The notes under the pieces: generated by a model | What the model was told of the DNA's origin: nothing | Seen by the model: only the letters and a program-made list of their open reading frames with translations | Databases searched by the model: none | Shown: one piece after another, positions 39,917 to 41,766 of the stretch | How the letters are laid out: each line of letters begins with the position of its first letter | How positions within the stretch are numbered: the stretch's first letter is position 1 | Made by a program: the position numbers and the translations under genes | Assembly: GCF_019056395.1 (NCBI RefSeq) | Contig: NZ_CP077639.1 | Location: 1,552,001-1,616,000, forward strand | Reading direction: 5' to 3' | DNA from: Terribacillus sp. DMT04 | GTDB taxonomy: Bacteria > Bacillota > Bacilli > Bacillales > Amphibacillaceae | Length of the DNA: 64,000 nt

Positions 39917-40546
39917 CTACTGAATAGAACGGTATAGGCCGATTACTTTACCGAGAATACTTACATTAGAAAGAATAATAGGATCCATTGTACTGTTCTC
40001 CGGCTGCAGGCGGATTTGGTTCTCTTCTTTGAAGAAACGTTTTACAGTTGCTTCATTGTCCTCTGTCATTGCCACAACAATTTCGCCGTTTTGAGCAGTC
40101 TGCTGCTGCTTCACAATAACCATGTCGCCATCTAATATGCCTGCTTCAATCATACTTTCTCCAACTACGACTAAGACGAAGATATTATCATCCGGGCCGA
40201 CGAGATGATTCGGGACCGGCACATACTCTTCAATATTCTCCACTGCTGTAATAGGAATACCAGCAGTGACTTTACCAATTACTGGCGCATAGTTCGGTTC
40301 ACCGTGAGGAATATCTGTCTGATCCCCGCTCTCAAGCGAGAGAACTTCAATAGCTCTGGGCTTCGTTGGGTCCCGGCGGATAAGTCCTTTTTTCTCCAAG
40401 CGGGAAAGATGGCCGTGTACGGTGGAGCTGGATGCCAGCCCGACTGCCTCACCGATTTCTCTAACGGATGGCGGATAGCCTTTATCTAGAACTTGCTCTT
40501 TTATGTAAGCTAAAATTGCTTCCTGTCTTTTCGATAGTTTCATCAT
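39917..40546 (-). CDS. lexA: SOS repressor LexA
   Basis: 209 residues from the first of two adjacent ATGs ([18 protein letters not shown]), 8 bases after GGGGTG; the second ATG is at 40543. The N-terminal winged helix has [19 protein letters not shown]. The self-cleavage site Ala-Gly is in [11 protein letters not shown], the nucleophile in [14 protein letters not shown] and the general-base lysine in ATVKRFF. RecA filaments trigger its cleavage. It is divergent from the SOS operon starting at 40720 and shares an operator region with it. Confidence 0.97.
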
Positions 40547-40583
40547 GTATCGAACACCCCGTGCATATATTTTTATTACATAC

Positions 40584-40612
40584 ATTATATCATGATAGAT
40601 TTCAATATACAA
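40584..40612 (-). promoter_or_regulatory. lexA promoter
   Basis: On the minus strand TTGTAT, a 17-base spacer and TATAAT. The -35 overlaps the adjacent LexA box, so LexA should block RNA polymerase. Confidence 0.8.
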
Positions 40613-40623
40613 ACATCCGTTCG
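40610..40623. promoter_or_regulatory. LexA box 1 (lexA operator)
   Basis: Minus strand CGAACGGATGTTTG matches every defined position of CGAACRNRYGTTYG. It overlaps the lexA -35. Confidence 0.9.
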
Positions 40624-40633
40624 AAAAAACCCC

Positions 40634-40661
40634 TTGACTAGAACCTGTGTTCGTATATAAT
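40634..40661 (+). promoter_or_regulatory. Promoter of the 40720-yneB SOS operon
   Basis: TTGACT (40634-40639), a 16-base spacer, TATAAT (40656-40661). LexA box 2 fills the spacer. Confidence 0.85.
40640..40653. promoter_or_regulatory. LexA box 2
   Basis: AGAACCTGTGTTCG matches 12 of 14 SOS-box positions and sits between the -35 and -10. Confidence 0.8.
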
Positions 40662-40674
40662 GGAATTAACGATA

Positions 40675-40688
40675 AGAACGCTTGTTCC
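40675..40688. promoter_or_regulatory. LexA box 3
   Basis: AGAACGCTTGTTCC matches about 12 of 14 positions and lies just downstream of the transcription start. A third operator would tighten repression. Confidence 0.7.
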
Positions 40689-40719
40689 TAAATATCTATT
40701 TTATTTGGAGGAATCTACT

Positions 40720-40815
40720 ATGTTAAAGAAACTATCAAAATCTGATTTGTTCTATTATGTATTATTCGGCTTCACGCTTTTCTTCCTATACTTTACACTT
40801 GTGATGAGTGTTTAA
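40720..40815 (+). CDS. 31-residue SOS-controlled membrane microprotein at the yneA position
   Basis: ATG 40720 follows TTGGAGGAATC. The peptide begins MLKKLSKSDLFYYV and has one hydrophobic span (FGFTLFFLYFTLVMSV). In B. subtilis this slot, between lexA and yneB, holds yneA, an SOS division inhibitor of about 105 residues with a membrane span and a LysM domain. Here only a short span remains and no LysM follows. It is the first gene behind two or three LexA boxes. I infer a miniature division inhibitor or another SOS membrane effector; nothing in the sequence proves it. Confidence 0.7.
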   Translation: MLKKLSKSDLFYYVLFGFTLFFLYFTLVMSV

Positions 40816-40827
40816 TTAGCTGAATGA

Positions 40828-41499
<672 letters not shown>

Positions 41500-41541: not shown

Positions 41542-41766
41542 ATGATATCCAAAGACAAATTGGCGCGCATCAATGCGTTAGCACATAAAGCAAAAACAGA
41601 AGGTCTCTCTTTAGGGGAACAGAAAGAGCAGAAAGAACTAAGACAAGAATACTTGAAGAATGTTCGCTCTTCTTTTAAGAATCAATTTAAGACAATGACA
41701 GTCGTGGACCGTGAAGGCAACGATGTTACACCAGAGAAAGTAAAAAAGCTGCGTGATGAAGAATAA
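41542..41766 (+). CDS. ynzC: DUF896 protein YnzC
   Basis: 74 residues, a helical hairpin plus flexible tail: ISKDKLARINALAHKAK, SLGEQKEQKELRQEYLK and DREGNDVTPEKV are family signatures. It belongs to the SOS operon in B. subtilis (yneA-yneB-ynzC). AAAGGAGC lies upstream. Its role is unknown. The dyad TAACAT-AGTTT-ATGTTA (41497-41513) between yneB and this gene is unexplained. Confidence 0.9.
   Translation: MISKDKLARINALAHKAKTEGLSLGEQKEQKELRQEYLKNVRSSFKNQFKTMTVVDREGNDVTPEKVKKLRDEE

What the first reader, a model, noticed from the sequence alone, without database searches (positions are those of the whole stretch)
40634..40815. 31-residue SOS-controlled membrane microprotein in the yneA slot
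Between lexA and yneB a division inhibitor with a membrane span and a LysM domain is expected (YneA, about 105 residues). Here the only gene is a 31-residue peptide with a good ribosome binding site (TTGGAGGAATC) and one hydrophobic span, behind a sigma-A promoter whose spacer is a LexA box. The reading frame ends cleanly and yneB begins 24 bases later, so this does not look like a frameshifted yneA. It may be a minimal SOS division inhibitor or a new damage-induced membrane effector.
Basis: partly seen in the sequence, partly recalled or inferred. Interest (0 to 1): 0.75.

Follow-up and report, generated by a model that had tools for sequence, protein, structure and literature searches.

The report
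LysM-less YneA reduced to one helix
In Terribacillus and its relatives, the DNA-damage gene that in Bacillus makes a roughly 100-residue cell-division inhibitor appears to have shrunk to a conserved 31-residue single membrane helix that may still stop division when DNA is damaged, and similar short helices sit among early genes of viruses resident in these bacteria.

Summary
A 31-codon ORF (40720-40815, +) lies between lexA and yneB, with a good ribosome site and a sigma-A-type promoter whose spacer is a LexA box; two more boxes flank it.

It is a real gene: 10 of 10 genus genomes carry it. In the family the slot could be read in 134 of 146 genomes: 122 hold a 30-35 residue relative, 12 hold none, none holds full YneA. 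Most within-genus comparisons show purifying selection, and all 122 upstream regions have LexA boxes. In 143 family genomes no single match reaches the YneA model's cut-off.

In 51 of 69 outgroup genomes read, the slot holds full YneA, starting at nearly the same distance from lexA. The peptide profile fits YneA's membrane segment better than all column permutations, though the curated YneA model does not recognise the peptide. A tree puts the helix-only state in one clade. I read it as YneA stripped to its FtsW-binding helix.

The puzzle: in B. subtilis that helix alone binds FtsW but does not inhibit (PMC13396833); Caulobacter's 29-residue SidA does. I favour a SidA-like minimal inhibitor. 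Function is untested.

The parts
40720..40815 (+). 31-codon microprotein gene: short basic N-terminus (K4, K7), D9, then one hydrophobic stretch about F11-S30, almost no tail
   Evidence: the span is by reading, not by a predictor
40705..40715 (+). ribosome binding site TTGGAGGAATC
   Evidence: an SD-like motif in 122 of 122 family loci, no control run for that count
40634..40661 (+). sigma-A-type promoter TTGACT-16-TATAAT
   Evidence: 11 of 12; TTGAC plus a -10 in 119 of 122 family loci, 99 of them with a LexA box in it, no control run for that count
40610..40623 (.). LexA box CAAACATCCGTTCG, nearest lexA
40640..40653 (.). LexA box AGAACCTGTGTTCG in the promoter spacer
40675..40688 (.). third LexA-like box AGAACGCTTGTTCC (8 of 10) between promoter and RBS
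   Evidence: box in a similar place in most of the 30 loci
39917..40549 (-). lexA
   Evidence: PF01726, PF00717
40840..41499 (+). yneB, resolvase-like
   Evidence: NF049883, E 8.6e-104
41542..41766 (+). ynzC (DUF896)
   Evidence: PF05979

Best explanation
The peptide is YneA reduced to its membrane segment. Shown here: it is conserved, under purifying selection, behind LexA boxes in the yneA slot, with no other YneA found in the genome. Inferred from profile similarity, position and the tree: an ancestor of this family and four neighbouring families lost the LysM domain and kept the helix. Inferred from published work on YneA and SidA: after DNA damage LexA is cleaved, the peptide inserts with its basic N-terminus inside, its conserved residues (D9, Y12, F16, L20, Y24) pack against FtsW of the septal wall synthase and hold it inactive, much as SidA does in Caulobacter, until LexA returns.
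For: Conservation: 10 of 10 genus genomes; 122 of 134 readable family slots, 0 with full YneA. In 127 peptides F16 and Y24 are in 127, Y12 122, F11 118, F22 117, K7 117, L20 115 (aligned on D9; unaligned on D9, D9 is in 126 and the exception is a frame I mis-picked). dN/dS under 0.3 in 17 of 19 genera. LexA boxes in 122 of 122. YneA model: no single match over cut-off in 143 family genomes, best 46.9 bits against 60; 96 of 150 genomes of the order have one at 63-110 bits, including all 51 whose slot I read as full YneA and none of the 18 others. YneA-TM similarity: 0 of 1000 and 0 of 1000 column permutations reach the true score, HHalign 0 of 200 and 0 of 200. Tree: one group of 50 rows, SH-aLRT 100, 41 helix-only and 9 empty, no full YneA. 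Similar short peptides among prophage early genes suggest an effector that works by itself. Literature: YneA's TM binds FtsW TM7; SidA, 29 residues, inhibits by interacting with FtsW.
Against: In B. subtilis YneA without LysM still localises but does not block division, and SosA without most of its outer tail is inactive. No NCBIfam model, YneA's included, matched the peptide or a relative up to E 10, nor did the YneA model match the f88 and f63 LysM-less forms. HHalign probabilities are modest (22% global, 41-64% local) and the reversed profile also scores somewhat above the permutations (-23.9 against -25.9, true -20.3), so part of the signal is hydrophobic composition. The conserved-face test is only suggestive (p 0.06-0.13). 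Twelve of 134 family slots have no peptide. Translation, induction and binding were not tested.
Confidence: 0.5

Rival explanations
1. The helix still docks on FtsW but does not inhibit by itself: it tunes or delays septal synthesis, competes with another partner, or needs a second factor.
For: B. subtilis YneA-TM localises to the septum and interacts with FtsW without toxicity (passages of PMC13396833).
Against: Strong conservation of the LexA-box promoter and of the helix over many genera, and phage-borne relatives, fit an active effector better.
Confidence: 0.23
2. It is a TisB- or DinQ-like SOS membrane peptide that depolarises the membrane and slows the cell.
For: Same size class and SOS control as those E. 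coli peptides (TisB recalled; DinQ from a search listing). The window has a promoter-like site on the opposite strand (40726-40698, 10 of 12).
Against: That site is absent in the one relative I scanned, L005; no Rfam hit; similarity to YneA's TM; yneA slot.
Confidence: 0.1
3. It is an unrelated small membrane protein that replaced YneA in the slot; the similarity to YneA's TM is convergence.
For: The match is short and mostly hydrophobic, and the curated YneA model does not see it.
Against: Nearly the same start distance from lexA (median 160 against 152 bases), column-permutation tests, the near match by eye between the f88 34-residue peptide and the f90 YneA N-terminus, and LysM-less intermediates in the slot.
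Confidence: 0.14
4. It is a leader ORF whose translation controls yneB, not a working protein.
For: It ends 24 bases before yneB.
Against: The amino-acid sequence is conserved with low dN/dS; relatives occur without yneB beside them in prophage-like loci.
Confidence: 0.03

Closest known systems
YneA of Bacillus (NF010723)
   Same: lexA-yneB slot, LexA boxes, N-terminal membrane span with a similar profile
   Different: YneA is about 100 residues with an extracellular LysM domain needed for inhibition; here LysM is absent and the YneA model does not match
SosA of Staphylococcus
   Same: SOS-controlled, one span, no LysM (passages of PMC6851548)
   Different: 77 residues with an essential extracellular tail; this peptide has almost none
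SidA of Caulobacter
   Different: no sequence relation was tested; distant phylum
TisB / DinQ of E. coli
   Same: short SOS membrane peptides (TisB recalled, DinQ from a listing)
   Different: described as toxins with antisense RNA control; no conserved antisense promoter was seen here in the one relative scanned
Gp11 of phage PhiNM1
   Same: small phage early membrane protein that blocks division (passages of PMC11237401)
   Different: 53 residues, two predicted spans, targets MurG and DivIC

Membership tests
YneA cell division suppressor | encoded between lexA and yneB | tested here: met
YneA cell division suppressor | LexA boxes at the promoter | tested here: met
   by sequence; LexA binding and induction not tested
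YneA cell division suppressor | N-terminal membrane segment homologous to YneA's | tested here: inconclusive
   permutation tests positive; curated YneA model negative up to E 10; HHalign 22-64%
YneA cell division suppressor | C-terminal LysM domain | tested here: not met
   31 residues; no LysM in Pfam or NCBIfam scans
YneA cell division suppressor | blocks septal wall synthesis via FtsW | not testable with these tools
   needs expression and microscopy
SidA-type minimal SOS division inhibitor | about 30-residue single-span peptide behind LexA boxes | tested here: met
   span by reading
SidA-type minimal SOS division inhibitor | inhibits division through FtsW | not testable with these tools
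   not done
TisB/DinQ-type SOS toxin | antisense RNA control | tested here: inconclusive
   a promoter-like site on the - strand in the window, none in L005, the only relative scanned; Rfam none

The most novel reading that the evidence does not exclude
A whole bacterial family and several neighbours run their SOS division checkpoint with a lone transmembrane helix derived from YneA by loss of LysM, which blocks FtsW without touching peptidoglycan; their temperate phages carry the same kind of helix as an early-gene division inhibitor.
Probability: 0.4. Interest if true: 0.82.

Novelty: new variant of a known kind. Interest (0 to 1): 0.68.

Why it matters
Work on B. subtilis concludes that the YneA helix only targets FtsW and that LysM does the blocking (PMC13396833). 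A clade that keeps a helix alone behind LexA boxes and under selection is a natural truncation experiment: either a bare helix can shut FtsW off, or the checkpoint output differs there. A 31-residue peptide makes this directly testable, and it may link YneA to SidA-like inhibitors and to a set of phage-borne relatives. Neither Pfam nor NCBIfam has a model that recognises it.

Tried and rejected
YneA elsewhere: Pfam LysM in the own genome gave 9 matches, all in frames of 300-574 aa. NF010723 over 143 family genomes: 140 have some match at E 0.001 or better (LysM proteins) and 7 are counted as over the cut-off; the two such rows that were printed (G130, G137) are sums with neighbouring repeats in frames of 653 and 167 aa; the other five are beyond the printed list. 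The best single match is 46.9 bits (cut-off 60), against 63-110 bits in 96 of 150 genomes of the order.

Frameshifted or degraded yneA in the window: rejected, since the frame is intact and conserved. The 12 family slots counted as empty were judged by the absence of a recognisable frame; one (L076) has an interval of ordinary length and may be a decayed copy; I did not try to read it further.

Class-wide profile search: 35 of 398 genomes at E 0.1 or better, but only 5 under 1e-4, all in the family; the helix-only forms in f60, f64, f82, f85 and f88 were found by reading slots, not by that search. Phage records: no match. Plasmid records, with a family relative as query: no match. IMG/VR: 1 relative of 131 candidate stretches. 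Rfam none on 40400-41000. PDB by sequence none. Pfam's only match to the peptide, TLC at E 0.023, is under its cut-off; PHROGs gave E 0.23.

Dropped rows: duplicate loci of one genome (L044, L046, L075, L080, L227). Twelve of 146 family genomes had no readable slot: 11 without YneB over cut-off plus G057 (L173, no LexA hit). Second hits judged noise: L011-L013, L221. Of 23 rows outside the slot, 19 were looked at (L219, L220, L222-L226, L301-L312), four were not; five of the prophage-like sequences were in the search alignment A3 by construction. L135 was mis-picked (wrong frame), where it was left out of the profile, and corrected. In one search one YneA row (L110) lacked its membrane segment through a wrong start; mended. 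In the tree at least five rows gave no LexA residues and rest on YneB alone. Gapless codon comparison inflates dN/dS where peptide length varies (g15, g21); g21 gave 0.48 and g29 0.75, two genera were saturated.

Literature searches for a LysM-less YneA or a lexA-yneB microprotein: 8 of 8 papers listed; 25 of 867 listed; 0; 7 of 7; 9 of 9; none seen in those listings. Mo and Burkholder 2010 was not held.

Full report
What is there. Between lexA (39917-40549, -) and yneB (40840-41499, +) lies a 31-codon ORF at 40720-40815 encoding MLKKLSKSDLFYYVLFGFTLFFLYFTLVMSV, with TTGGAGGAATC before it and yneB starting 24 bases after its stop. The promoter TTGACT-16-TATAAT at 40634-40661 matches 11 of 12 positions. 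LexA boxes lie at 40610, 40640 (inside the promoter spacer) and 40675. Genome-wide the exact pattern CGAACN4GTTYG is at four places, against 22 matches of the reversed control pattern, so single boxes mean little. Besides this one, a box lies before an ORF that looks by eye like ParE, one lies between ORFs I did not identify, and one lies inside an rpoB-like frame (no library used).

It is a gene. All 10 genomes of the genus that were searched carry it at 90-100% identity. In the family search 134 of 146 genomes had a match at E 1 or better, many of them weak. I therefore read the lexA-yneB slot itself. It could be read in 134 of 146 family genomes: 122 hold a 30-35 residue relative, 12 hold none that I recognised, 0 hold full YneA. 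Over 127 peptides (122 of this family, 5 of four neighbouring families), aligned on D9, F16 and Y24 are kept in 127, Y12 in 122, F11 in 118, F22 and K7 in 117, L20 in 115. dN/dS is under 0.3 in 17 of 19 genera with a value; the exceptions are 0.48 and 0.75 from single pairs; averaged pN/pS is 0.26 against 0.19 for the start of yneB. LexA boxes at 9 or more of 10 positions occur in 122 of 122 upstream regions against 0.009 per shuffled region. A TTGAC promoter was found in 119, with a box in it in 99, and an SD-like motif in 122; for these three counts I ran no control.

Where it came from. Of 69 outgroup genomes in 42 families of the order, the slot holds full YneA in 51, a LysM-less protein with a tail in 9, a helix-only peptide in 6 and none in 3. 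YneA starts a median 152 bases from lexA, the peptide 160; the lexA-yneB interval is a median 490 bases with YneA and 278 with the peptide (117 of 122 within 254-310). The YneA model NF010723 has a full single match in 96 of 150 genomes of the order: these include all 51 that I had read as full YneA and none of the other 18. In 143 family genomes no single match reaches the cut-off (best 46.9 of 60 bits; 7 genomes pass only as counted by the tool, two of them visibly through tandem repeats, five not printed).

Is it YneA's helix? The peptide profile scores YneA N-termini better than 1000 of 1000 permutations under each of two schemes (mean -20.3 against -25.9 and -25.3; the reversed profile gives -23.9). 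HHalign scores 16.1, not reached in 200 plus 200 column shuffles (maxima 15.0 and 15.9; reversed 11.8); its probabilities are 22% global and 41-64% local. Against this, no NCBIfam model matched the peptide up to E 10, YneA's included. Pairs that strike the eye: the f80 YneA begins MFKIQKISFQDISYVAIFVVLIIYLLMSV, and the f88 34-residue peptide KRFSGEEIGIIIGFVATIVLMCASVLITS resembles the f90 YneA start RRWSGQEVFIIILFVLTVLLMISSVVVSAS.

The tree. A quick YneB plus LexA-N-terminus tree of 114 rows (one per genus and state in the family, all outgroups) puts 41 of 42 helix-only rows in one group of 50 rows with 9 empty ones, SH-aLRT 100, and no full YneA inside (no bootstrap, midpoint root for drawing). 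The group spans the window's family and f60, f64, f82 and f85. Outside it, f88 has a helix-only form, and f11, f63, f73, f9 and f84 have proteins of about 58-95 residues with no LysM match in Pfam up to E 1. In f63 one genome has LysM and one has not. The f73 form still matches the first 35 positions of the YneA model (E 0.0016, under cut-off); the f63 and f88 forms do not. LysM loss therefore seems to have happened several times.

Prophage relatives. A profile search of 143 family genomes gave 23 matches outside the slot at E 0.001 or better, in 20 genomes; I read 19 of them. Five of those sequences were in the profile by construction. Apart from the broken L224, they are open frames of 29-65 residues (106 in L312); starts were not assigned. 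In five of these loci and one IMG/VR contig that I compared with PHROGs, each has phage genes nearby: anti-repressor in L226, L302 and L308, Erf annealing protein in L226 and L307, a phage regulator in L306, an SbcC-like subunit in L302, integrase in the contig L313. The others look like prophage by eye or are unclear. L313 encodes MRSLTLTDIFYLVAFGLTLGFLYFSLINA, 52% identical to the window peptide over residues 2-28. A LexA-like box occurs somewhere in 3 of the 21 loci scanned (L223, L309, L311). The bare helix carried by phages suggests that it acts by itself; this is inference.

How it probably works. In B. subtilis the YneA membrane segment binds FtsW TM7 and brings YneA to the septum; K5A, E6A, F10A, V11A and F14A almost abolish toxicity; LysM must bind peptidoglycan for inhibition, and the segment alone does not inhibit (PMC13396833: abstract, section 6 and passages). 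The f2 YneA in my set has the same K-E-x3-F-V-x2-F spacing. Lined up at the basic residue, K5, F10, V11 and F14 fall on K7, Y12, L13 and F16 of the peptide, with the acid one place later; this is my reading, not a test. SidA of Caulobacter is 29 residues and inhibits by interacting with FtsW (PMC4211646, passages), so a bare helix can inhibit elsewhere; the 2026 paper notes that a low-confidence model puts SidA on the opposite side of TM7. SosA has no LysM but needs its outer tail (PMC6851548, passages). I favour a SidA-like mode in which the helix alone holds FtsW/PBP2B inactive. The five least variable positions of the span (D9, Y12, F16, L20, Y24) are spaced like one helix face, but the moment test is only suggestive (p 0.06-0.13).

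What is shown and what is not. Shown: conservation, selection, LexA boxes, slot, no YneA found elsewhere, LysM-less forms in several families, phage-associated relatives. Inferred: descent from YneA (about 0.75), membrane insertion, FtsW as target, inhibition (about 0.5). No description of it appeared in five searches of the held library, which lacks most subscription journals.

Noticed in passing
L242, L267 (f73), L232 (f63), L229, L230, L266 (f11), L250, L251 (f9), L249 (f84): Proteins of about 58-95 residues without a LysM match in the yneA slot, outside the main clade, pointing to repeated LysM loss.
   Followed up: partly
L219, L220, L222-L226, L301-L313: Short single-span relatives outside the slot, several among early genes of prophages or on a viral contig; those tested have no PHROGs family.
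   Followed up: partly
L084, L086-L089, L091-L093: Family members whose lexA-yneB interval is only 131-195 bases with no recognisable peptide: apparent loss of the gene.
   Followed up: no
L126: A TnpB-like ORF (by eye) lies just upstream of yneB in G285, and that genome's YneA match is about 1.7 kb upstream of yneB.
   Followed up: no
L277: A record titled Roseburia sp. 1XD42-34 carries this peptide, so the organism label is probably wrong.
   Followed up: no
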